Positions 3,533-30,490 of a stretch of DNA of 37,207 nt are shown piece after piece. The position numbers and the translations under genes are program-made. Each line of letters opens with the position of its first letter. Positions within the stretch are counted from its first letter, which is position 1. Under the pieces are notes generated by a model. That model saw nothing but the letters and a program-made list of their open reading frames with translations. It was not told the DNA's origin and ran no database searches. The stretch is from a virus, in the IMG/VR virus record IMGVR_UViG_3300044846_001950, positions 1 through 37,207 of that record, one strand, 5' to 3'.

Positions 3533-3760
3533 ATGAATGCGAACAAACTCTATTGCGTGGTCGTTACAGACCCTGACGATGTATTAGGATGCTTAGAAAG
3601 CCCTATCATCTTCCATATTAAAACTAATTCACTATTTACAGCTGAAGAAAAAGTCAAATCTGAGCTTATATCAGAGGACTATGGCTACGAGCTTAATGAC
3701 GTGGATAGCTTGGACATATTTGTCTTTGAGGTTACTGAGTTAGATATTATAGAAGCATAA
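3533..3760 (+). CDS. Small acidic early protein, unknown
   Basis: The product is 75 residues and acidic, with ordered-looking strand/helix content (LYCVVVTDPDDV; SLFTAEEKVKSELISEDYG; LDIFVFEVTELDI). No membrane segment or known motif. The start at ATG 3533 follows an A-rich stretch as at most genes here. The overall size and charge resemble its neighbours. Confidence 0.65.
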   Translation: MNANKLYCVVVTDPDDVLGCLESPIIFHIKTNSLFTAEEKVKSELISEDYGYELNDVDSLDIFVFEVTELDIIEA

Positions 3761-3788
3761 CAATTAATACCAAATAAAAACAAACAAT

Positions 3789-4043
3789 ATGAGTTTACTA
3801 ATGTTAGAACCCAATTCAGTGCAGTTAATCTCGATAAGCACTACTGCATTCAGCGAAGAGGATTTCCTCTTGGTTACCGACTTGACCGAGCAAGAGATTG
3901 CCGATGTCATCCGACCAATTGTTTTTGCAGAGCGTGAGGGCGGTGAGTCCTATAGCAATGAGGACTTGTTTTGGTCGCTCAAGGAAGCTTACCCATCTAG
4001 CTTGGTTCAATACTACATTGAGCCAATTGGAATGGTCGTGTAG
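3789..4043 (+). CDS. Small acidic early protein, unknown
   Basis: The product is 84 residues, net acidic, with no recognised motif. A helical acidic stretch (TDLTEQEIADVIRPIVFAER) is followed by SNEDLFWSLKEAYPSSLVQYY. It is preceded by the A-rich leader CAAACAAT. Its stop codon (4041-4043) lies only four bases before the hammerhead ribozyme stem I, so its mRNA would end in the ribozyme after self-cleavage. Confidence 0.65.
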   Translation: MSLLMLEPNSVQLISISTTAFSEEDFLLVTDLTEQEIADVIRPIVFAEREGGESYSNEDLFWSLKEAYPSSLVQYYIEPIGMVV

Positions 4044-4047
4044 CAAA

Positions 4048-4105
4048 GGTTAACTGAAGAGTCCTGAATGGACGAAACGAGGGGTGTATGCCTCTCGTCT
4101 TAACC
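4048..4105 (+). ncRNA. Type I hammerhead ribozyme
   Basis: All core elements of the hammerhead fold are present in order. Stem I is GGUUAA (4048-4053) / UUAACC (4100-4105). The CUGANGA core is CUGAAGA (4054-4060). Stem II is GUCC (4061-4064) / GGAC (4070-4073) with loop UGAAU. GAAA is 4074-4077. Stem III is CGAGGGGU (4078-4085) / GCCUCUCG (4090-4097) with loop GUAU, eight pairs including two G-U. Then U4098 and C4099 form the UH cleavage site. Open stem I makes it type I; cleavage is expected between C4099 and U4100. It sits in the 80-base gap between two early genes and would split their message, giving a 5'-hydroxyl end just upstream of the next gene. Activity is inferred from structure; every invariant core base is seen. 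Confidence 0.9.
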
Positions 4106-4123
4106 AAATTAATAATTAATGCT

Positions 4124-4318
4124 ATGAAAGATTATCATTTCTATTTATTCACCAAGTTATACGATGTAATAATAGGTGAGGAGTCGGAATACGACTTGAT
4201 GTTTGACCACTTAGTAGACCTACACGAAGAGTACGAGATGTCTCATTTCAATGACGGGAAGCTACCTGAGTACGAGTGCATAGTAAATTTCTTAAACCAT
4301 AAAAAACAAACGATATGA
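4124..4318 (+). CDS. Small acidic early protein, first gene after the ribozyme
   Basis: The product is 64 residues (MKDYHFYLFTKLYDVIIGEE...). ATG 4124 is preferred to ATG 4088 because 4088 falls in the loop of ribozyme stem III and upstream of the cleavage site, whereas 4124 follows an AT-rich leader typical of this operon. The sequence is helical and acidic (YDLMFDHLVDLHEEYEMSHF) with a LPEYECIVNFLNH end. It overlaps the next gene by ATGA. Function unknown. Confidence 0.65.
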   Translation: MKDYHFYLFTKLYDVIIGEESEYDLMFDHLVDLHEEYEMSHFNDGKLPEYECIVNFLNHKKQTI

Positions 4319-5155: not shown

Positions 5156-5626
5156 ATGGAATACACAACACAGGACGGCTTCGTATGGGAGGTCATCAGC
5201 AAAGGTGAAGCAATGAACCTATTCAAAAATAACAAAGAGGTATTCAAGCTATATGATGACGACTCTGAGTCTGCCATCGAAGATGAGCTAGACTTCATTG
5301 ACGAATTCGTTATGTATGCCATCGAAGGTAAACAAGCACCGAGGAAATGGGCGAGGGTTGACACAGCGACTGGCAAAGGAATGAACGAGGGGTTCTGCGT
5401 TAACGATGGAGACGCTTACTTCGTAAACAGAGCAGACCTGATTAAATATCTGAGAGAGGAAATGAAGGTAGATGAGAACAACGAACTATCGGACGAGTTC
5501 ATCTTGGAAGAGGCTTATCAGGAAGAGGAAGAGGGATACTACTACTACACTGAGTGGGACGTGGAAGACGAGGAGTATTGGTACGAGGAACAAGCGGACG
5601 GAACACTAATTGAAATTAATAAATAA
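5156..5626 (+). CDS. Acidic early protein with GKGMNEGFCV motif
   Basis: At 156 residues this is the largest protein in the early run and is very acidic. Residues 1-60 form a Glu/Asp-rich front. Residues about 64-97 carry KWARVDTATGKGMNEGFCV and NDGDAYFVNRADLIKYLRE, then comes a tail with EEEEGYYYYTEWDVEDEEYW. The C-to-GMNEGxCV block followed by an aromatic YF and an LIxYLR helix recalls a recurring small phage/bacterial module that is sometimes near zinc-ribbon proteins. No cysteine pair suggests metal here. Such acidic, aromatic tails are typical of nucleic-acid-mimicking host inhibitors, but that is inference. Confidence 0.7.
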   Translation: MEYTTQDGFVWEVISKGEAMNLFKNNKEVFKLYDDDSESAIEDELDFIDEFVMYAIEGKQAPRKWARVDTATGKGMNEGFCVNDGDAYFVNRADLIKYLREEMKVDENNELSDEFILEEAYQEEEEGYYYYTEWDVEDEEYWYEEQADGTLIEINK

Positions 5627-19223: not shown

Positions 19224-19231
19224 CAAATTTA
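19224..19231 (-). promoter_or_regulatory. Possible -7 box before the ferritin gene
   Basis: TAAATTTG (19231-19224 on the minus strand) matches TAnnTTTG and lies 24 bases before the ATG at 19200. No TTTG at a 19-21 bp distance was found, so the call rests on the -7 box alone. Confidence 0.35.
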
Positions 19232-22200
19232 ATCCTTTTCTTCGTATTTCGACCTATTTGGGTGAGCTTTTATTTGACCCCTTTCTTCAATAAAGAAATC
19301 ACTCTTTTTAGGCTTGGTCATAGCAGGAAGTTTGTATTTGTCAAAAATATACAGTGCCTTGTAGTAATCTCTCACACCCTTCTTACCCCCGTCTGTGCCA
19401 TCTTTATACTTTTGTTTGAACTCAGGGTTTTCGTCTAATGACTTAAACAAAAAGTCTTCAGCTATTCTCTTGTCCTTGATGTTTTGGACATAGTTCATCT
19501 GCTTGCCTTTCATTATGTCTTCGTATAGACTATAGCTTGTTATTTTTTCAACATCCCAAACAGGCTCATCAGCAACAAAGTTTTCTTCGAAACTATCCCA
19601 TCTTTGATAGTTGTAACCTAATTCTTTTGCTGTTTCATATTTAGCCTTCTCAGATAAGTATTTCAATTTTTCATATCGAACTTCATCTTCCGCAATCCCC
19701 TTTACTTTATCAATAGAGTTTTTGAATTTCTCAGTTGCTATTTCTTTATATCTGTCTTTCTCTCTGCTAGATATGCCTTGAATATCAGTATCCAACTGAT
19801 TGTCATTGTTTAATATTAAACTTTGCATATCTATTACTTTTCCACTAGGGAGGGTATATTCCGTTCTAGGGTCAATTTTCTCTACAGATAATTTATCCTC
19901 TGCCCAACGTACATAGTCATCAATAAATGGAATAGCACCTGGAGTAAACATAACTGTTAATGTTTGCCCTAACGTAGCTATCGAGTTTGCCATGTACATC
20001 CATTGCTTACCCTCATCAGTTTGTTGAGTCCATTCATAAATATCATAAAGAGTAACTTGCTCTCGACCTTTATTCCGAACATCTTTAACAAAGTCCGCAA
20101 CTGCATCAACTGTCATTCCTATGATAGGCTCGAGGTTAGCGGATATTTGCAAGGCAATATCATCCTTTTCTGAAGGTAAATCATAAAAGTCAATAGGATC
20201 TACAAAGTACAACTCTCTCATTGTGTTCTCAATAAGTCTTCTTTGTCTTCTATCCTCACTCATAGTGTAAGCAGCATCTAATAAAAGAGTACCGACAACC
20301 TTACCACCTGCCGCATACTTACCACCAACTAAAGTTGCACCTACTTGTTTTGCTGAGAATATAGCAAGGTCTATCCAACCCTGAGCAGTTTTAAGAGAGT
20401 CTAAAGTTTCTTTAGCCTCTTCCTTTTCATCATCGTCACCCAAGTTTAGGGCAGCAACAGCCTTTCCAATAACCATCAATACAGGATAAAGAGCTAGTCT
20501 GCTATAAGCACCTAGAGATTGGGTTAAACCATCTTTTATCTCACCTCTTGTAACCGCTTTGCGTAAACCTCCTATAAGGTTATCAGCATCATGGTTAATA
20601 AAGCCAGAGAACATACCTACAAAAGGAGCCGCATATGAATCTGCTGAGATTCTTGCCTGTTTAACTAGAGGTAACCATTCAATGAATTGTCTTTGCTCCG
20701 CTTTGTTACCGCCCTTCATGATTCTTCTCATTCTGAAGTCAGCATTTGAAGCAGCTATGTTCATGTCATCGTAATACTTTGCTTTCTCTTTTACGAAATG
20801 TTTTTCGTAGTTAAACTTTTCACCTGTATTATTTTGAAAATCTCTTTCGAACTGAGACATCCATTCCCCTTTTCTCATAAACCCAGTTATGTTATTGAGG
20901 AACTTGTTAATCAAACCAAAATTACTTTCTCTGTCTAAGTAGCTATCAACACCTTTCTTTCCGCTAAGTTTAACTTTCTTCTCCATGCCGGTAAATTGAA
21001 CCGAGGAATCGAACTCTGATAATAAGTTTTCAGTCTGTTGTTTTTCCTTTGAACTGAATGGTAATGTTAAAGACTTGGAACTTCTGTTACCTACAGCGTA
21101 AGAGATAAGGTTAGTTGTAAATTCAACAGGTGTTCTTACAATTCCTATTAAGGCATCAACAAAGAACTTACCCATTAACTTCGATAAGCCAAACGTACTT
21201 TCAGCCTTTTGAAGAGCAAATGGAGCAATGGTGTCACTCAATTGTTTTAAGTTGTTCAACATCACAACCTCATCTGAACTAGCATTTTCTTGTGCGTTAG
21301 AGAAAACTTCCTTCACATATCTTTTAGCGTCAGTCAAGTAGTAGTCTCTCAAGCCTTCGTTAACATTTGTCATCACAAGTCTATCCACGTTGTAACGAAT
21401 AGCCTCTGCTGGAACTTGAAGAACACGCTGATAAGAAGCTCCTGAACGTATTGCCGCACCGACATTTTTATTATAACTAATGTCCGTAGATGTCAATGCT
21501 GCCTTTCCTGTTCCTATAGCTTGTCTCGGCATATAGTAAGGGTTTAATTCATGCTGTTGGTTTCTGATACCACTTGCGCTATTAATGTACTCCCCTGCCT
21601 CTTGTAAGGCACTTCTCGCAGCGTTGTAATACTCTAGTTGATTAGATGTAAGAATAGATGTGGGATCTGTTTCAAACGCTTCGAGGACTGCCATGTGGTC
21701 CAACCCTCCATTTCCATCAGGGAACATTTTCTTCAAGTCGTTGTAAATATTATTTACGATATCCAACTCGTTGACATCCTCGTTCTGCATTTTATTTCTT
21801 TCCTCTGCACTAAGCATCTGCTTGCCCAACCAGTCGTTAACAGTTTTCTTCTTCTGTTTAGCGTTCCATGCGTTGTCAAGAATGTGTCCAACAACACCAA
21901 TCATCACTCTGTCGTAAGCATCTTTTGAAACCTTCATTGTTCCATTAGGAATCAAAGATCCATCGGTAGTTAACTTGAACTTTTCAATCTTTGTTCTGTT
22001 GATAAGTTTGCCAATACCGGGAACATTCTTTAAAATTTTTTGGCTTCTCAAACTCTCCACTTTCTTTTGGTATTTCTTTAAGATTCTTTGAGAGTCTTTC
22101 TCCCATCCGTTAATCGCTCTTACGATTGGGTCTACCAAATTCTTTCTGAATGCACCGTTCTCTTTCATACCTAGTCGAGACTCCCAGAATACAACACTCT

Positions 22201-25200
22201 TCCCTAGAGTGTCTCTCATCATCTTGATGTATCCATTCTTTGGGTTTGAGTATTTGTTACGAACTTTTTGAGACTGCTCAACTAAACTCTTACCAACCTC
22301 GTTGCCCCTGATTTCTGCACGATCCAATAAGGTTCTTAAATTCTTCTCGTCAACAAATCCTGCCTCAGCAATCTGAGCAGTAACTTGATTTAACAAGTCG
22401 AGGTCCTCAAGGCTTAATGTCATCAAGTTATCAGGAGTCGCTCTCATTAACTGGTCAATCAACTTCTTTTGATTTTCCGTAAATGAGTTAGGAGAATTAC
22501 TCAACCAGTCTTTGATTGAGTCCATAAATCCGTAACCACTCTTGTCTGTGATGCCTTGGATTAATATGTTTTTTAAATCATCTATCTGATCTTGGAACTC
22601 AGAAGCGTAGGTGTCTGTATTAGCAGAGTCTTCAATAACTTTATTTTTAGAAATCTCGTACTGAGCCTCACTTATTGCACCCGTTTCTAACAGAGTGTTT
22701 AACGCTCTCATGTACTTACCTACCTCTCTCTTAAAACTCTTATACTCTTCAAAGTCATTTATAGTTTTATCTTTGTCAAACAACTTGTCAACAGATTTTT
22801 GCCACTTTTCAATAGTGTCTGCAATGTCAATATCGTTTGGTTGGTTCTGTTGATTTGCATCATACATCCCGTCAAACAATTCCATCATCTTACCAATCTT
22901 TGGTACTCTATCGCTAGTTAAATCACGAAGAGCGTCTAAGTATTCGGTCATGGTATCCATGTCAAATGCTAGATCTCCGTCTGCTGTGAACATATCAAAT
23001 TTGGCAAACATCTTCATGTTAGATGTGTACTGATATCCAACCTTGTTTAATAACTGCTTCTGAAGTTTCTTGATTTCGTTTAACCCTTCAGCGAGTCTTC
23101 TGTTTGCAATCACCTTATCTAAGTAAGATACAAAGGCATCTAACTGCTTTTGGTTGGAGATGGTTGCTGCTCTACGGGCAATAGACTTTAATGTAGCCGG
23201 AGAGACTGTTCCCTTCTTGCCAAGCTCGTTGTCTATTACATCTTTGATATATTCAGATACTAAAGCCCCCAAACCTCTCTGCTCAGTTCTTCCTGCCTTG
23301 AGTCCTTTGAAGTATCCGACAAACTCTCCAACCTTTTTACCCATAGACTTTCCGGTCTTCTCCCCTGCAAGTCTTGCAACCCCAGCCTCAAATCGAATAT
23401 TGTAACCAAGTTCCTTGATTCGGTCTTGTAGTTCTTGTTTGGTTATCTTGCCATCTTCTAGCTTCTTATTTAAAGCATCGATAGTTTTCTGAGCTTGTTC
23501 TTTAGCTTGGTCTACTCCTTCTTTCTTACCTTCCTTACGACCCTCTAGAGCAGCCTTTACTTCTGCTTTAACTCTATCGGTAAGGAGTTTACGCTCGCTC
23601 ATTGTAATCTCCGTAGACTCAGCCTCTAACTCTCTTTCGGTTTTTGATTTAATCTGCTTTATTTTATTGTTGACAGCCTCTTTAACTCCTGGTTGAGCTA
23701 AGTACTTATCAGCAGACGCTTGGTCTCCATTGGTAATTTCAAGCGCAGCTTTGTTAACTGCATCCGCTTGAGAAACTCCCGTGGTATCCATAATGGATTT
23801 AGCGTTACCTGCTACTTGTTCGGCAATACTTATTTCTTCTTTTGAAAGTTGAGATTGATCTTTGCCGGCTTGTGATTTTGATTTCGGACCACTTTTCTTA
23901 GCCAACACCTCGTTAGCTTCAAACATTTCAAGAGCTGGGTTAAACTCAACAGCTGAAGGATAATCTTTATCAGGTCTCTGATAAAACTCCCCTTTCATTT
24001 TCTCAGTTGTCTCAGCTCTCAAGTCTTTGCCCCATTTAACAACAATCATTGGGTATCCCAACTTAGCAGCTTCTTGAGCAATGAATGCAGCCTGCTTATT
24101 AGGATCAAATGTTTGCCCTGGATACATCTTTTCAAATGTAGCTTTTGCCGCATCGTATAAGTTCAATGGGTCCTCATTAAAAGGATACACATTGTCTTTA
24201 GGTATTCTTACAACATAACCATATCTACCCGACACGTCTAATACGTCAGGTCGAGTGTAGTACATACTAATATTTAAGCCAGGTCTCTCATCCTTTCCTG
24301 TTCTGCCGGTATTCTTACCAAAGAACTTAGGATCAATAGAAGAAATTTTGTTAGGAGAGTAGTGGTAGAACAAATAGTTACCTTGATCATCCTCAGTCAT
24401 ATCCTTAGTTAACTTAGCCTTATCTACAAGAGATTCACCAGCTTTAGCTTGAGATTTAGATTTTATACCAGTATTAATTCTAACTACTGAGTAAGGTATA
24501 TTTCTAGCTCCTGCAAAATTAGCAGCATAATCTAAATCTCTTAAAGGAGTATTATCATTTTCAATTTTTTCTGATGTTCTAACTTCACCATCTTTTACTG
24601 AAGATAAAATATCTTTATAATCTTTCCTTTCTGATAACATATGGACAGTCACTCTTTGACCGTCTTCTGTTTTCATTACTCCTGGATAAGAAATATGCTT
24701 TCTTTTTTTAGCTGGAATATCAGACTCGTCTTCGACAATTAATTTAGAAGGTATTTCAATATAAGCAACTGCTGATTCAGCAGGAGCATTTTCCATAAAA
24801 CCTTCTTCTTGCACATTACCTAATCTTTTAGTTGCTACATCAACTGTTATTTTTCCGCTTTTATTTAGTGGGATATTTAACTTCTTAGATAAACTGCTAA
24901 AGTCAATTTCATTAGATTTAAATATTTCAGCTATAATTTTCTTCCCAACATTAACTCTTTTCTTAAAGGTTTCATCGTTAGAATTTATAAAATAGTCTTT
25001 AATAACACTATGAAGTTCTTTTGCGCTTAATTTTCCGCTAAATAATTTGATCCCCTCATTATCCTTTTCTTCTTTAACTGCCGTATTTAACGCATTTCTA
25101 AACACACTTAATGGTATATCACCATCTTGAACTGCTAACTCTAAAATATCTATAGCAGCAGCCATGCCGTCTCGACTACTTAATACTTTTAAATCTGTTG

Positions 25201-28200
25201 ATTTAAACACAACTACTCTTACAGGTTTGCCTGGGTATTTGTCAAATATTTTATTTACTAAATTGATAAATGTTTTTGACATCTTAGGAGTTGAAGCCCA
25301 GAATGTACCGTCTTCATTATATTTAATAGCAAAGTGCAAACCTCCATTTCCTTCTAATACTACTCTCTTATCTCCTTTTTTATACTTAACGCCATCAACT
25401 TCCGTGTCTTTGTCATAAGTGCCGTAAGATAAATCTCCAACCATCTTATTATCAGGGAACATTGATATTACTACCTCACCCTCTAACTCTTCAATCTTTG
25501 CATTTTGAATTAAATACCCATCATCTTCTAATTTTTTTAAATCAGACTCAGGTATAAGGTTAGCTTCAAAACTTCCACCTAATGCGTATTTTGATTTTAC
25601 TTCTTCAGACGTGTCAACATTTTCAGCAACTTCATTGTCAATTTTTATTTCTTCACCATAATAAACCTTGTTTGCCAATGTCTGGAAGAATTGCATAATC
25701 TCTTCTGGAGAGGACGTGTCGTCAATAGGTTTAAGACCCGGGCCAAAATACTTAGCGATAAGTTGATTAATATATTCCGCAATAGATTTAAAGAAAGATT
25801 TAGTAGCTGGATCTGATTCTTTTAAATTAGACAAAACAGCTGTGAGTTCAGACATATATTCTTCCGCACGCTCAACATCATCATAAGCCTCATTAGAAGC
25901 TAAATCCGCAGCAATATCATCTATAGAAATTTCTATTTCTTCACCATTTTCATTAATGGATTTTAGTTTCTTTCCTTTAGCTAATTCTGCTATTTTATTT
26001 TTAAACTGTGCGTAAAGTTCAGGTTTTTCTCCAAACATTTTGAACAATACAGCGTGTGTCATTTCATGCGCTACAGTACGCAAATTAGCAGCTTCTAAAT
26101 TTATAGCAATAACCCCAGATTCTTTTTCTGGAAGAATTGTAAATAAACCTTTTGAATCTTCATTAGCACCAATAGAGTTGGCGTAATTTTTAAAATCAGC
26201 TTCATTATCAAAAACAACCATTTCAAAGTTAGGAAGTATAGACTTTAATGTTTTTACAGCCTTAATAGCCTGATCTACTATTCTTCTTTGCTTTGGTGTT
26301 TTTGCCAACTTTGATACCTCTTTAGTTCGATTAGTATCACTAATATTATATCCGGTAGAGTTAGCTTGTTTTAAAATTTCATCTGTTGAAAATTGAGTTT
26401 CCTGTTGCTTAGGAGTTTCTATCTTATTACCATCCTTATCGAGCAAGGTATTAAAATCGTATTCTATAGCAAAGTCTAATCTCTCGCCAGCTAAATTAAT
26501 CGTGCTGTAATTATCTGTTTGAGGTTCAAATTTCTCGCTTCCTTTGATTCTAGGGTTATATGATCCGTCTTGATATACTAATCCGTCATGTGTAGCTACA
26601 GACTCTTGATCAAATTCTACTGCAAAATCAACAGCATCTTTTCTAGATAAATTAGGAACAATAAAACTTTTCTCGGAGTTGCCGTATTTCCCAAATATAC
26701 CGTCAGTAGAATAACCTCTTGCTTCTAGCCAAGACTTAGCTACCTCATTTCTTTTAGCGTTTTCTTCATCGCTTAAAGATTTTCTTTGAGGATTCCAAGC
26801 TGTAAGAAGCCCAAATACACCATTCTTAATCGTTTCTATAAATGAATTACGATCAGGGAAAGAAGACTCGGGCAAACTCTCTTTAGCATTCTCATCCCAA
26901 GCCTCGTCTCTAACTATTTCTTCTTTCCCAACTTCCTGGGGAGCAACTTGAGGCTGAGTAATTCTGCTCTCTACGTTGTAACCAAGGCTTGTCAATTCCT
27001 GTTTAGCATTCTCAATGGCTGCATCTTTTTTAGACTGACCACCTCTTTGAGGAGCGTTGATAGTAAGAGTCCCGTCCTCGTTTAAATTAATAACAGTGCC
27101 TGTTGATTGTTGAACTTGGTCGATGTCATTTTGCATCGCCTCTTGTTCTTTCTGTTCTTGTGGAGTAGCTATTACTTCTTCCTTCCCAACTTCTTGGGTA
27201 GTACTTTGCCCTTCGAGGACTGGTTCCACTCCTTTACGTTGACCCCCTGTTTCTCCAACTTCTTGCGGTTGGCGTTGAAGAACTTCTCCTGTGCTTGGCT
27301 CTTGTACGGCATTTTCTTGTGGTGTTTCGGTTATAGTTGATGTTTTTTCTCCTGCGAGAATTTGTTTTATTTCAGTATCAATGTTTGCTATTTCCTCTTT
27401 AGTTTTAGGGTCTTCCAAACCAAAGTTTTTCATAGCTGCCTCAAGGTTCTTTTTTCTGATTGTCTCAGATAAAACGTGAGCCTTTAAGTTAGCGTCTAGG
27501 TTAGCGTATCCGGGTAACTTCTGAGACTCTTTAGCAACCATTGAAATTTCTTCTAATTGCTTTTTATTCTCGTTATAAAAGTCTGGTACTTGTTTTTCTA
27601 TCTCTGATAAAAAGTTGTTGCTATTTGCTCCTACATATAAAATTCCTTCTGACAAAGCGTCTCTTGATTGTGTAGAGGCAATGTCTATAGTAGCGTTACC
27701 TGCTCCCCCTAATAATAAGGCAGGTACAGTTGTTAATATTACCTCTTCTCCATTAGTCTCCACTTCAGCTACAGAGCCATCGTTTATATAGTTATACGCT
27801 CGGTTTGTAGCTTTCTGACCTACCATTTGAGTAGTTTCTTCAAAAGCGTTTAAAGCTGCTCCCTCAACTATTGCAACAGCTCTAACTCCCACGTCTTTAG
27901 CTTTATCAGCAACTTCTTTTGGTAGAGACTTATAAAAGTCAGCCATTATTTCGTCTACATTTTTACCAGCCTTAATACCCTCTTTAATAGCACTTGAACG
28001 ACTAGCTCTTATTGCCTTGTAAATTTTACCCTCGCCATATATTCCTTCTAATAAAACATCAGTAGCGGTGTTCATCAAAGCAATGTTTCTAGCGTCCATT
28101 GGATTCATTCCCGAGTTGATATTGTCTTGGTAGTTCATTGGGAAAGAGGACATGAAAGTTGTAACGGTTTGGGCCGCCATAACACCCATACCACCCTCCA

Positions 28201-30490
28201 TTAAAACTCCTGAGCCTGTAGCCATTGCCGCCATTTGAACTGCTGCACCACCTGTAGCGTTTAATATCTTGTCAACCATGTCAGCATCGCTTCTAACCGA
28301 TGTGAATGGGTCTAACACCGTGCTTGCGTCTGATAAAGTTTCCGTAACCCTGTCCATTTCAGAATACTCATCGTCAGCGGCAAATAAATTAGCAATATAA
28401 ACAGGACTAAATAACAATCCAGATGCCATTTTATATGCGGTATTAACAGCACCTTTAGTAAACTCTACAGCCCCACTAACAAAAGGTGATCCCACCGCTT
28501 CGTCAGCAACTTTTCCGTACAAATTAATATAGAAATCCATCTTCTCTCTCTCACGAATATCGTCAAAACGATTTACAGAAGATTCCTCATGACCTTTAGA
28601 TCTTTCATTTAACTTACTAACTAAGTCAACTCTGTCAGCAGCCATAGTCAAGTCAGAAATCGCTGCCGCATCTACTCCGGTTTGGTTTATTACAAAATTC
28701 TTTTCGTCATTAGCGTTGTTAATAATTTTAACTAACGCTTGAACCTCGGGGTCATTTATTTTCTTTTCTTGCTCTTTAATTGTTTGGTAAAGAGCATTTG
28801 ATTCAGTATAATACTTGTTGTAATTTTCTTGGGCTTTTCCCCAAGACGTTGTGTAGTTTAAAGTCTTGGCGTTAACTTGCTCATTAATAGCATTGAACTC
28901 TTCAACCAATTGAGAATATTCCGCCTCTTCTTCTCTCGTAACCTCTCCTTTGGTTTGCAACTCTTCTATTCTCTTGTTGATAACATCTTGACGAGATGTT
29001 AATGGTGTAGTAAACTCCTCATAGTCATCGTTTAACGAGGTCATCTCATCGGCATATTTTTTTGCCTCAATTTGTTGTTGGGTTAATGTTTTACCTTGTT
29101 CCTCTATAGCTTTTCCAGCAACATCATAACCTAACTCTTGTAATCTTTTTTGAGCCTGTACAATTTTAAAGTTTGTAATTCTTAGATCCTTGGATGCCTT
29201 CTCGTACTCTTTGGTTGATGTTAATAGAGTAACATCAGAGCCAATGGTGTTAGCGTAAGCATTCATTGCACGAGATTCTTGTGCTTGAATAAATTGCTCA
29301 TCAACTCGGTCTAAATCTTTTCCGTTACGCTCGTCATTAATTAAAGCCTCATATTTTGACCTTTCAAACCTAATTTGGTCTTGATCTTCACCTTTATTAT
29401 TTAAATACCTTTCTTCAGCATCGTAATAATCAAGGGTAACGTCCGACCTAAAGTTTTTAAACTTAGAATACGCTGCATCTGGATTGGTGGCATACTCTTC
29501 TAATATCGCATTTTTATCGTGATTTAAATTGCTGCGACCATTTGAAAATACAAATTCATACTTTTCTTTTGCGGCTGTAGCGTTAGCAATATTCTCTTGC
29601 TTTACCCATTCTTTTGCTTGTTGTATCTCAGCAACATCTTTTGAACCCTTTAAGAACTTGTTGAACTCAGACCCCCAAACTTCCAACGGAGTTCTGTTTG
29701 CCTTCCTTTTATCTTGGTCTGTATAAAATTGCTCTAATCTAGCGTTATCCCAACCAAATGTTTTTTGAATTATCTTTCCTAAAGGACCTGCCTTTCTTCC
29801 GCTAATATCCACAGGCGTCATAGGCAAAGCACCTAAGCTAGTTGGGGGAATTGCATTCTCTTCCTTTGCCATCTTTTGAGCAGAGGCGGTTTTCCATTCT
29901 TTCTCATCAGCGTACATAGCCATTCCAGGAAAGGTCTTCTTTACAGACTCTAACCAAGGATCACCTGCGTCAACAACTTGAGTGTAGGGAAAAGACCCCT
30001 CTTCTTTTGGCTCTACAAGTACCTCAACCTTATTAGTTGTTGGGTTGAAATAACCCATAGATACGTTATAAGAATCGTCAAATGGAACTGCTTTTGCCGC
30101 AAGTTCTTCTTTAGTTTCTTGCGGCTTTTTCTTTTTAAATGGAGAAATTGTATTTACAGGAGCAGGTGCTGAAAAGACTGGCTTTTCAATTACTTGCTCT
30201 GTAACTACTTCTTGTGTAGGCTCAGTACCAACCTCTTGGGTTGTCTCTGTAGTTTCGCTTGGCTGCTCTGACTCCTGCTGAGATAGCGGAGTAGATTCGA
30301 CCATAGATTCCTCTTTTTTTTTTAACCCCTCGTAGGCGTTTATATCGTAGCCTAACTGATTTAATCCGTTGTTTACCTTCTCGGCATACCCAGGGTCTTC
30401 CATTTTAGATTGAAATTCCTCAAATGTGTCTGGAGTTTCTGCTCTCGAGTCAGCTACTAACTCATTAAATAAGTCTTGTAAATTTGCCAT
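19229..30490 (-). CDS. Giant polyvalent ejection-type virion protein (3753 aa)
   Basis: Features in order (rough residues): N-terminal FEEFQSK ... LGYDINAYEGLKKK (20-60), Gln/Glu/Thr-Pro linker with QEVG repeats (80-140, 1070-1190), coiled coils (360-550), hydrophobic, membrane-active block (670-935: GAVNTAYKMASGLLFSPVYI, AAVQMAAMATGSGVLMEGGM), a zinc-protease-like VAHEMTHAVLF (HExxH 1475-1479, Glu in EEYMSEL 1543-1549), an ADP-ribosyltransferase-like region (2040-2175: FYHYS, MYYT, GYVVRIPKDNVYPFN), a Gly/Lys-rich coiled coil (2285-2360), helical body, and a C-terminal block (3320-3600) with further hydrophobic helices. Size, place after two smaller internal-protein-like genes and membrane-active regions match T7 gp16-like and other polyvalent ejection proteins. 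The enzyme domains would act in the host after entry. Individual domains are by eye. Confidence 0.75.
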   Translation of the reverse strand: MANLQDLFNELVADSRAETPDTFEEFQSKMEDPGYAEKVNNGLNQLGYDINAYEGLKKKEESMVESTPLSQQESEQPSETTETTQEVGTEPTQEVVTEQVIEKPVFSAPAPVNTISPFKKKKPQETKEELAAKAVPFDDSYNVSMGYFNPTTNKVEVLVEPKEEGSFPYTQVVDAGDPWLESVKKTFPGMAMYADEKEWKTASAQKMAKEENAIPPTSLGALPMTPVDISGRKAGPLGKIIQKTFGWDNARLEQFYTDQDKRKANRTPLEVWGSEFNKFLKGSKDVAEIQQAKEWVKQENIANATAAKEKYEFVFSNGRSNLNHDKNAILEEYATNPDAAYSKFKNFRSDVTLDYYDAEERYLNNKGEDQDQIRFERSKYEALINDERNGKDLDRVDEQFIQAQESRAMNAYANTIGSDVTLLTSTKEYEKASKDLRITNFKIVQAQKRLQELGYDVAGKAIEEQGKTLTQQQIEAKKYADEMTSLNDDYEEFTTPLTSRQDVINKRIEELQTKGEVTREEEAEYSQLVEEFNAINEQVNAKTLNYTTSWGKAQENYNKYYTESNALYQTIKEQEKKINDPEVQALVKIINNANDEKNFVINQTGVDAAAISDLTMAADRVDLVSKLNERSKGHEESSVNRFDDIREREKMDFYINLYGKVADEAVGSPFVSGAVEFTKGAVNTAYKMASGLLFSPVYIANLFAADDEYSEMDRVTETLSDASTVLDPFTSVRSDADMVDKILNATGGAAVQMAAMATGSGVLMEGGMGVMAAQTVTTFMSSFPMNYQDNINSGMNPMDARNIALMNTATDVLLEGIYGEGKIYKAIRASRSSAIKEGIKAGKNVDEIMADFYKSLPKEVADKAKDVGVRAVAIVEGAALNAFEETTQMVGQKATNRAYNYINDGSVAEVETNGEEVILTTVPALLLGGAGNATIDIASTQSRDALSEGILYVGANSNNFLSEIEKQVPDFYNENKKQLEEISMVAKESQKLPGYANLDANLKAHVLSETIRKKNLEAAMKNFGLEDPKTKEEIANIDTEIKQILAGEKTSTITETPQENAVQEPSTGEVLQRQPQEVGETGGQRKGVEPVLEGQSTTQEVGKEEVIATPQEQKEQEAMQNDIDQVQQSTGTVINLNEDGTLTINAPQRGGQSKKDAAIENAKQELTSLGYNVESRITQPQVAPQEVGKEEIVRDEAWDENAKESLPESSFPDRNSFIETIKNGVFGLLTAWNPQRKSLSDEENAKRNEVAKSWLEARGYSTDGIFGKYGNSEKSFIVPNLSRKDAVDFAVEFDQESVATHDGLVYQDGSYNPRIKGSEKFEPQTDNYSTINLAGERLDFAIEYDFNTLLDKDGNKIETPKQQETQFSTDEILKQANSTGYNISDTNRTKEVSKLAKTPKQRRIVDQAIKAVKTLKSILPNFEMVVFDNEADFKNYANSIGANEDSKGLFTILPEKESGVIAINLEAANLRTVAHEMTHAVLFKMFGEKPELYAQFKNKIAELAKGKKLKSINENGEEIEISIDDIAADLASNEAYDDVERAEEYMSELTAVLSNLKESDPATKSFFKSIAEYINQLIAKYFGPGLKPIDDTSSPEEIMQFFQTLANKVYYGEEIKIDNEVAENVDTSEEVKSKYALGGSFEANLIPESDLKKLEDDGYLIQNAKIEELEGEVVISMFPDNKMVGDLSYGTYDKDTEVDGVKYKKGDKRVVLEGNGGLHFAIKYNEDGTFWASTPKMSKTFINLVNKIFDKYPGKPVRVVVFKSTDLKVLSSRDGMAAAIDILELAVQDGDIPLSVFRNALNTAVKEEKDNEGIKLFSGKLSAKELHSVIKDYFINSNDETFKKRVNVGKKIIAEIFKSNEIDFSSLSKKLNIPLNKSGKITVDVATKRLGNVQEEGFMENAPAESAVAYIEIPSKLIVEDESDIPAKKRKHISYPGVMKTEDGQRVTVHMLSERKDYKDILSSVKDGEVRTSEKIENDNTPLRDLDYAANFAGARNIPYSVVRINTGIKSKSQAKAGESLVDKAKLTKDMTEDDQGNYLFYHYSPNKISSIDPKFFGKNTGRTGKDERPGLNISMYYTRPDVLDVSGRYGYVVRIPKDNVYPFNEDPLNLYDAAKATFEKMYPGQTFDPNKQAAFIAQEAAKLGYPMIVVKWGKDLRAETTEKMKGEFYQRPDKDYPSAVEFNPALEMFEANEVLAKKSGPKSKSQAGKDQSQLSKEEISIAEQVAGNAKSIMDTTGVSQADAVNKAALEITNGDQASADKYLAQPGVKEAVNNKIKQIKSKTERELEAESTEITMSERKLLTDRVKAEVKAALEGRKEGKKEGVDQAKEQAQKTIDALNKKLEDGKITKQELQDRIKELGYNIRFEAGVARLAGEKTGKSMGKKVGEFVGYFKGLKAGRTEQRGLGALVSEYIKDVIDNELGKKGTVSPATLKSIARRAATISNQKQLDAFVSYLDKVIANRRLAEGLNEIKKLQKQLLNKVGYQYTSNMKMFAKFDMFTADGDLAFDMDTMTEYLDALRDLTSDRVPKIGKMMELFDGMYDANQQNQPNDIDIADTIEKWQKSVDKLFDKDKTINDFEEYKSFKREVGKYMRALNTLLETGAISEAQYEISKNKVIEDSANTDTYASEFQDQIDDLKNILIQGITDKSGYGFMDSIKDWLSNSPNSFTENQKKLIDQLMRATPDNLMTLSLEDLDLLNQVTAQIAEAGFVDEKNLRTLLDRAEIRGNEVGKSLVEQSQKVRNKYSNPKNGYIKMMRDTLGKSVVFWESRLGMKENGAFRKNLVDPIVRAINGWEKDSQRILKKYQKKVESLRSQKILKNVPGIGKLINRTKIEKFKLTTDGSLIPNGTMKVSKDAYDRVMIGVVGHILDNAWNAKQKKKTVNDWLGKQMLSAEERNKMQNEDVNELDIVNNIYNDLKKMFPDGNGGLDHMAVLEAFETDPTSILTSNQLEYYNAARSALQEAGEYINSASGIRNQQHELNPYYMPRQAIGTGKAALTSTDISYNKNVGAAIRSGASYQRVLQVPAEAIRYNVDRLVMTNVNEGLRDYYLTDAKRYVKEVFSNAQENASSDEVVMLNNLKQLSDTIAPFALQKAESTFGLSKLMGKFFVDALIGIVRTPVEFTTNLISYAVGNRSSKSLTLPFSSKEKQQTENLLSEFDSSVQFTGMEKKVKLSGKKGVDSYLDRESNFGLINKFLNNITGFMRKGEWMSQFERDFQNNTGEKFNYEKHFVKEKAKYYDDMNIAASNADFRMRRIMKGGNKAEQRQFIEWLPLVKQARISADSYAAPFVGMFSGFINHDADNLIGGLRKAVTRGEIKDGLTQSLGAYSRLALYPVLMVIGKAVAALNLGDDDEKEEAKETLDSLKTAQGWIDLAIFSAKQVGATLVGGKYAAGGKVVGTLLLDAAYTMSEDRRQRRLIENTMRELYFVDPIDFYDLPSEKDDIALQISANLEPIIGMTVDAVADFVKDVRNKGREQVTLYDIYEWTQQTDEGKQWMYMANSIATLGQTLTVMFTPGAIPFIDDYVRWAEDKLSVEKIDPRTEYTLPSGKVIDMQSLILNNDNQLDTDIQGISSREKDRYKEIATEKFKNSIDKVKGIAEDEVRYEKLKYLSEKAKYETAKELGYNYQRWDSFEENFVADEPVWDVEKITSYSLYEDIMKGKQMNYVQNIKDKRIAEDFLFKSLDENPEFKQKYKDGTDGGKKGVRDYYKALYIFDKYKLPAMTKPKKSDFFIEERGQIKAHPNRSKYEEKD

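What the first reader, a model, noticed from the sequence alone, without database searches (positions are those of the whole stretch)
4048..4105. Complete type I hammerhead ribozyme inside the phage early operon
The sequence contains every conserved hammerhead element in the right order and spacing: 6-bp stem I, CUGAAGA, a perfect 4-bp stem II with UGAAU loop, GAAA, an 8-bp stem III with GUAU loop, and UC at the cleavage site, closed by the second stem I strand. Cleavage would fall after C4099, between the stop of one tiny gene (4043) and the start of the next (4124). Self-cleavage would split the early message, set a defined 5'-hydroxyl end 24 nt before the downstream ATG, and might change the stability or translation of the two halves. 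Hammerheads are known in bacterial and phage genomes, but one positioned as an mRNA divider in a dense early run is unusual.
Basis: seen in the sequence. Interest (0 to 1): 0.88.

Follow-up and report, generated by a model that had tools for sequence, protein, structure and literature searches.

The report
Self-cutting RNA between phage genes
A phage carries a 58-base RNA that almost certainly cuts itself between two small genes; such cutters are already known in phages, but this one belongs to a large, under-annotated group that sits at near-fixed distances from the neighbouring stop and start codons, which makes its purpose easier to test.

Summary
Window 4048-4105 (+) is a complete type I hammerhead ribozyme: stem I GGUUAA/UUAACC, CUGAAGA, stem II with UGAAU loop, GAAA, 9-bp stem III, cleavage after C4099, 4 nt after one gene's stop codon and 24 nt before the next ATG. 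It is not chance. A search fixing only one strand of stem I and the core returned 98 distinct phage sequences; all had the opposite stem I strand and 87 a fully paired stem II, in over 20 different sequences.

The 'unusual divider' claim does not hold. Hammerheads clustered between prophage genes, and the idea that they cut phage transcripts into gene-length mRNAs, were published in 2011 (PMC3088659). This is a new member of a known kind.

What the tools add: such ribozymes occur in over 100 IMG/VR phages, up to 10 per operon, always on one strand; Rfam's cut-offs recover 1 of 50. In the window's clan the upstream stop codon is often the ribozyme's own UAA or UGA, and the start codon lies 18-30 nt after the cut in 78%. 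Cultured Cellulophaga phages with and without the ribozyme upstream of the same gene offer a direct test. Cleavage itself is untested.

The parts
4048..4053 (+). stem I, 5' strand GGUUAA
   Evidence: opposite strand present in 98/98 pattern hits
4054..4060 (+). catalytic core CUGAAGA (C3-A9, N7 = A)
4061..4073 (+). stem II GUCC/GGAC with 5-nt loop UGAAU (loop class UNNNU)
4074..4077 (+). core GAAA (G12 A13 A14 A15.1)
4077..4098 (+). stem III hairpin ACGAGGGGU-GUAU-GCCUCUCGU; would be the 3'-terminal hairpin of the upstream message after cleavage
   Evidence: not followed by a U run
4099..4100 (+). predicted cleavage site between C17 (4099) and U4100
   Evidence: inferred from the hammerhead consensus; not tested
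4100..4105 (+). stem I, 3' strand UUAACC; would be the 5' end (5'-OH) of the downstream message
4047..4047 (+). conserved A directly 5' of stem I (96/98 in the clan; 51/53 in the wider 6/4/5 class); probable loop II contact
4106..4107 (+). conserved A(A) directly 3' of stem I (first A in 95/98 in the clan; 49/53 in the wider class)
3789..4043 (+). upstream gene, 84 aa, no PHROGs match; stop TAG ends 4 nt before stem I; homologues in L122 and L123 also carry a ribozyme directly after it
4100..4123 (+). 24-nt A/U-rich leader left after cleavage
   Evidence: clan median 23 nt
4124..4318 (+). downstream gene, 64 aa, no PHROGs match; replaced by other genes at the same junction in relatives

Best explanation
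It is a type I hammerhead ribozyme that acts in cis as a punctuation mark in a polycistronic phage message. Once the RNA has been transcribed and ribosomes have cleared the upstream stop codon (4 nt before stem I here), the RNA folds and cuts after C4099. The upstream message then ends in the stem III hairpin with a 2',3'-cyclic phosphate; the downstream message starts with a 5'-OH and a short A/U-rich leader before its ATG. The likely benefit is that accessory genes become separate mRNAs whose stability and translation no longer depend on their neighbours, the role host RNase III plays for T7 early mRNA. Shown here: sequence, fold, pairing conserved across divergent sequences, one-strand clustering, near-fixed geometry. 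Inferred: cleavage in the cell, end chemistry, ribosome interplay, and benefit.
For: Complete motif and exact predicted fold, far above chance. Largely non-circular pairing test: a pattern fixing only GGTTAACTGANGAG...GAAAC gave 98 distinct hits; 98/98 have the stem I 3' strand after UH (allowing 5 of 6 pairs; chance estimated, not computed, at about 2%), 87/98 pair all of stem II in over 20 sequences (88.8% versus 13% with shuffled partners), 95/98 have stem III of at least 4 bp in 89 different sequences. At the orthologous junction in L123, found by protein similarity, stem II is GGGU/ACCC instead of GUCC/GGAC and stem III is wholly different, yet both pair. Flanking A's and a UNNNU loop II are conserved across clades. 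All 51 records with two or more ribozymes carry them on one strand, up to 10 alternating with small genes. 125 of 141 have both neighbouring genes on the ribozyme's strand. Cut-to-start is 18-30 nt in 78% of the clan. Precedents: tandem phage hammerheads cleave in vitro and, for A. tumefaciens, in E. coli; the halovirus HF1/HF2 transcript 5' end maps within 3 nt of a hammerhead cleavage site 13 nt before an ATG (PMC3088659).
Against: No cleavage data for this sequence. In Perreault et al., 4 of 18 consensus-conforming hammerheads were inactive in vitro. Stem I is short and A/U-rich; its predicted pairing falls to 0.35-0.85 in longer contexts. The window's phage keeps only one ribozyme. In Cellulophaga phages phi13:2 and phi46:3 the same downstream gene with nearly the same leader has no ribozyme, so it is dispensable for that gene. 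Tight spacing could partly reflect compaction of intergenic space.
Confidence: 0.68

Rival explanations
1. The ribozyme is mainly a mark of gene traffic: a short conserved repeat at gene borders through which accessory genes are swapped by homologous recombination, or a hitchhiking element that spreads with cargo genes; cleavage may be active but is not what is selected.
For: Downstream genes differ at the same ribozyme in close relatives: window gene 4124-4318, its absence in L122, a 93-aa gene in L123. In phi19:3 similarity to phi18:3 starts exactly at the ribozyme. Identical or near-identical ribozymes flank single genes in L300 and L299. Stem I triplets are identical within a genome in 59-64% of pairs against 6-10% between genomes, while stem III triplets are identical in 22%.
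Against: Repeat function alone does not explain why stems II and III vary while pairing is kept, nor the conserved core, flanking A's, one-strand rule and near-fixed distance to the start codon. A recombination repeat would need conserved sequence, not conserved structure.
Confidence: 0.2
2. The ribozyme is a regulated 5'-UTR switch for the downstream gene: in the uncut RNA the start codon is partly sequestered, and cleavage (or its inhibition by a ribosome on the stop codon or another factor) sets translation of that gene.
For: Predicted pairing of UAGCA(4041-4045) with UGCUA around the ATG lowers start-codon accessibility in the uncut RNA (0.08-0.27 unpaired) against the cut RNA (0.56, 0.57, 0.28). 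Stop codons overlap or abut the ribozyme in most clan members.
Against: The outer helix is not kept in L123 by inspection, no ligand-binding domain or extra conserved element is present, and the downstream gene is not constant. It can coexist with the best explanation.
Confidence: 0.09
3. Shared stem I arms let the pieces religate, giving circular or trans-spliced messages: any freed 5' UUAACC end can pair with any GGUUAA arm from the same phage.
For: Stem I is more alike within genomes than stems II and III, so ends from different ribozymes of one phage are compatible.
Against: Perreault et al. looked for spliced or circular products and could not detect them (PMC3088659). Some other clades carry a leader echo that would refold stem I's 3' strand into a hairpin and disfavour religation. 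The window has only one ribozyme.
Confidence: 0.02
4. A chance or decayed hammerhead-like sequence without activity.
For: Rfam scores lie below the gathering cut-offs; nothing has been tested experimentally.
Against: Shuffle tests, retention of pairing at the orthologous junction, 98/98 stem I pairing in pattern hits and conserved flanking A's.
Confidence: 0.01

Closest known systems
Clustered hammerhead ribozymes of prophages (Perreault et al. 2011, PMC3088659)
   Same: Hammerheads flanking single genes or short gene blocks in phage genomes; proposed to cut long transcripts into gene-length mRNAs; in vitro and E. coli cleavage shown for some
   Different: The window's phage lineage is another one, without a cultured near relative, and holds one copy. 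The embedded stop codon, near-fixed leader and flanking A's were not found in the passages of that paper read here; its figures and supplements were not available
HHphage of haloviruses HF1/HF2 (PMC3088659)
   Same: Hammerhead just upstream of an early-region start codon (13 nt); the mapped transcript 5' end lies within 3 nt of the cleavage site
   Different: Variant core with inserted residues, archaeal host, single copy ahead of a helicase gene
Rfam RF00163 Hammerhead_1 (type I)
   Same: Same topology, core and stem order
   Different: Scores 16.8 bits against a cut-off of 34
Rfam RF03152 RAGATH-1 hammerhead
   Same: Shares the hammerhead core and open stem I; best Rfam score (31.3 bits)
   Different: Below the cut-off of 56.3; the upstream helix of that family is not seen in the window's clan (5.18 versus 5.07 bp in shuffles)
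T7 early mRNA processing by host RNase III (recalled from general knowledge, not looked up here)
   Same: A long early phage message is cut between genes into smaller mRNAs with defined ends
   Different: There a host protein cuts hairpins; here the RNA would cut itself and leave 5'-OH and cyclic-phosphate ends

Membership tests
type I hammerhead ribozyme (structural class) | core CUGANGA ... GAAA ... UH in the right order | tested here: met
   CUGAAGA, GAAA, U4098 C4099
type I hammerhead ribozyme (structural class) | three helices around the core, stem I open to the flanks | tested here: met
type I hammerhead ribozyme (structural class) | helices maintained by compensatory change in relatives | tested here: met
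   largely non-circular; orthologous junction; one search is circular because the sequences were chosen by pairing, and is not relied on
type I hammerhead ribozyme (structural class) | tertiary contact between loop II and the stem I end | tested here: inconclusive
   conserved A/A flank and UNNNU loop II suggest a contact; no Watson-Crick pseudoknot in this class
type I hammerhead ribozyme (structural class) | self-cleavage 3' of C17 | not testable with these tools
   needs in vitro or in vivo assay
Rfam RF00163 Hammerhead_1 | score at or above gathering cut-off 34 bits | tested here: not met
   16.8 bits; the Rfam search recovers 1 of 50 similar ribozymes
Rfam RF03152 RAGATH-1 hammerhead | score at or above gathering cut-off 56.3 bits | tested here: not met
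   31.3 bits
Rfam RF03152 RAGATH-1 hammerhead | additional helix upstream of stem I | tested here: not met
   no excess helix upstream in 97 clan members
clustered phage hammerheads acting as transcript dividers | lies between co-directional genes on the coding strand | tested here: met
clustered phage hammerheads acting as transcript dividers | several ribozymes in one transcription unit | tested here: inconclusive
   one in the window, 1-3 in close relatives, up to 10 elsewhere
clustered phage hammerheads acting as transcript dividers | transcript is actually cut in infected cells | not testable with these tools
   no transcript data at hand

The most novel reading that the evidence does not exclude
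The element is a portable punctuation cassette: the ribozyme itself supplies the upstream gene's stop codon (UAA of GGUUAA, or UGA of CUGA, in two of three reading frames), cuts the message, and sets a leader of about 23 nt for whatever gene follows, so small phage genes can be swapped at ribozyme borders and still be expressed as separate mRNAs. Terminating ribosomes would hold the ribozyme open and so time the cut.
Probability: 0.3. Interest if true: 0.72.

Novelty: new member of a known kind. Interest (0 to 1): 0.47.

Why it matters
What hammerhead ribozymes do in bacteria and phages was still called an open question in a 2017 review (PMC6155905). The finding points to a group that Rfam's cut-offs almost entirely miss but that is common in phage contigs, has near-fixed geometry relative to stop and start codons, and occurs in cultured Cellulophaga phages next to relatives that lack it at the same gene. 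That gives concrete predictions for cut sites and a natural with/without comparison.

Tried and rejected
Intrinsic terminator: none found at the site. RAGATH-1 membership: below cut-off, upstream helix absent in the clan. Watson-Crick pseudoknot between loop II and the downstream flank: no excess in this class. Covariation counts on the descriptor-chosen alignment: 100% pairing is built in, so replaced by the pattern-only test. The covariance model's 62 bits for the window is not independent evidence, since the window is in its training set. Nearest-ORF distances without gene calling: confounded by spurious ORFs, replaced by a simple codon-usage gene caller. Host identification through recT in bacterial genomes: no relative found; the best phage recT matches are Bacteroides/Phocaeicola phages at 36% identity, which with the A/U-rich leaders only hints at a Bacteroidota host. 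Cellulophaga phage phi38:1: no ribozyme. The post-cleavage 5' hairpin seen in other clades does not apply to the window.

Full report
OBSERVATION. The window is the whole of one 37,207-base IMG/VR virus record. The sequence at 4048-4105 reads GGUUAA-CUGAAGA-GUCC-UGAAU-GGAC-GAA-ACGAGGGGU-GUAU-GCCUCUCGU-C|UUAACC. Every element of a type I hammerhead is present in order, and the predicted fold of this stretch is exactly that structure (-21.3 kcal/mol, z -3.7), also with 28-30 nt of flank. In longer contexts stem I pairing falls to 0.35-0.85, and stem II falls to 0.56 in one of them. In 400 dinucleotide shuffles of the window, a descriptor of this quality was never met; a lenient one was met 7 times. 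The motif lies between a gene ending at 4043 and one starting at 4124, both on the + strand.

WHY RFAM IS SILENT. Rfam at gathering thresholds gives nothing in the window; below threshold it gives RAGATH-1-hammerhead at 31.3 bits (cut-off 56.3) and Hammerhead_1 at 16.8 (cut-off 34). In 11 related and unrelated phage loci that hold 50 descriptor hammerheads, Rfam recovers one. A covariance model built here from 46 ribozymes gives the window 62 bits; the window is one of the 46, so this is a consistency check only. Low Rfam scores are therefore a property of the short-stem phage class, not evidence against the window.

NOT CHANCE, LARGELY NON-CIRCULAR TEST. The distinct hits with enough downstream sequence number 98 and include the window and its relatives. 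All 98 have the complementary stem I strand after UH (96 with 6/6 pairs, 2 with 5/6; roughly 2% would be expected by chance over the stretch searched, my estimate), 87 have a fully paired stem II, and 95 have a stem III of at least 4 bp, in 89 different sequences. Stem II 5' strands come in 27 versions among all 98 hits; the fully paired ones listed still number more than 20. Full stem II pairing is 88.8% against 13% when partners are shuffled. At the orthologous junction of L123, found through the neighbouring protein, stem II is GGGU/ACCC and stem III is unrelated in sequence, yet both pair. Two unpaired positions are also conserved: A directly before stem I (96/98) and A directly after it (95/98). 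In 53 non-redundant ribozymes of the same 6/4/5 layout, which include other stem I sequences, the figures are 51 and 49. Loop II is UNNNU in nearly all. I read this as a loop II to stem I contact; that is inference.

SURROUNDINGS. Relatives of the flanking proteins occur in five IMG/VR contigs that carry one to three ribozymes each. The ribozyme follows the 84-aa gene in both relatives that have that gene (L122, L123), while the gene after the ribozyme differs: the 64-aa gene in the window, its absence in L122, a 93-aa gene in L123. Over all collected loci, 158 type I hammerheads were found in 95 loci; 2 lie inside a same-strand gene and 10 under an opposite-strand gene. Of 141 with a gene on each side, 125 have both genes on their own strand. 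In all 51 records with two or more matches, every match is on one strand (tables). G094 has ten in 4.8 kb, mostly one per gene.

GEOMETRY. In the window's GGTTAA clan the upstream gene's stop codon is the UAA of GGUUAA in 26 of 90 cases and the UGA of the core CUGA in 18 of 90; in most others it ends within a few bases of stem I. The first base after the cut lies 18-30 nt before the start codon in 78% (median 23). The window fits: stop 4 nt before stem I, start 24 nt after the cut. Gene calls are from a simple codon-usage caller written here, not an established program, so individual cases may be wrong; the peaks do not depend on single cases. Compact packing between a stop codon and a ribosome-binding region could explain part of this.

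CULTURED RELATIVES. A similarity search of the phage collection with the ribozyme region gave Cellulophaga phage phi18:3 and Agrobacterium phage OLIVR1 among its weak hits; the model confirms one hammerhead in each, in gaps without an annotated feature. The gene downstream of the phi18:3 ribozyme recurs in phi19:3 with a different hammerhead, and in phi13:2 and phi46:3 with nearly the same leader and no hammerhead. So the ribozyme is not needed for that gene, and similarity between phi18:3 and phi19:3 starts at the ribozyme itself.

HOW IT MOST LIKELY WORKS. Shown: motif, fold, maintained pairing, clustering on one strand, position between genes. Inferred: self-cleavage after C4099; an upstream message closed by the stem III hairpin and a cyclic phosphate; a downstream message with 5'-OH and a short open leader; separate decay and translation of the two. 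Because the stop codon abuts or lies within the ribozyme, a terminating ribosome would cover it; cutting should follow its departure. This last step is a prediction, not a result.

WHAT IS KNOWN. Perreault et al. [quoted passage not shown] coli, found no circular or spliced products, and noted that a halovirus transcript 5' end lies within 3 nt of a hammerhead cleavage site 13 nt before a start codon. De la Pena's 2017 review says prokaryotic hammerheads flank small, non-conserved ORFs, are tied to phages, and that their role is open (PMC6155905). A 2023 paper repeats that the reason for such associations is unknown (PMC10085705). The ribozyme is a new member of a known kind. The embedded stop codon and near-fixed leader were not found in the passages I could read; figures and supplements were not available, and at least one key review is not in the library, so I do not claim priority.

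LIMITS. No experiment. Contigs are metagenomic and often fragments. The host of the window's phage is unknown.

Noticed in passing
L163, L164, L165, L169, L099, L007, L036, L121 and others (leaders after the cut): In many non-window clades the leader carries a copy of stem I's 5' strand, so that the freed 3' strand could refold into a 5'-terminal hairpin after cleavage (33 of 158 with score 12 or more, 7.6 expected, maximum 16 in shuffles). It could drive product release or protect the 5' end. The window lacks it.
   Followed up: partly
L300:1258-1309 and 1626-1677; L299 (reverse complement coordinates) 565-624 and 1614-1673; 3754-3805 and 5427-5478: Identical or near-identical ribozymes recur within one phage as direct repeats, two of the pairs flanking a single gene, as expected if gene-plus-ribozyme units are duplicated or exchanged by recombination.
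   Followed up: no
multi-ribozyme genomes, e.g. L157, L158, L166, L171: Stem I sequence is shared among ribozymes of one phage far more than between phages, while stems II and III differ.
   Followed up: partly
window 4041-4045 and 4120-4124: In the uncut RNA UAGCA at the stop is predicted to pair with UGCUA over the start codon, which would be released by cleavage; by inspection not kept in L123, so possibly chance.
   Followed up: partly
NC_021794.1 21904-21958 (-), NC_021789.1 21769-21817 (-), MT234338.1 3960-4009 (+): Unannotated type I hammerheads in sequenced phages phi18:3, phi19:3 (Cellulophaga) and OLIVR1 (Agrobacterium).
   Followed up: yes
window 19229-30490 (-): A single ORF of 3753 aa with a DUF3293 domain fills nearly a third of the record; function unclear.
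   Followed up: no
genes beside ribozymes in the collected loci: Most neighbours have no family match; those that do include RNA polymerase (also N4-like), primase/helicase, thymidylate synthase, DNA ligase, ArdC and DNA-modification enzymes.
   Followed up: partly
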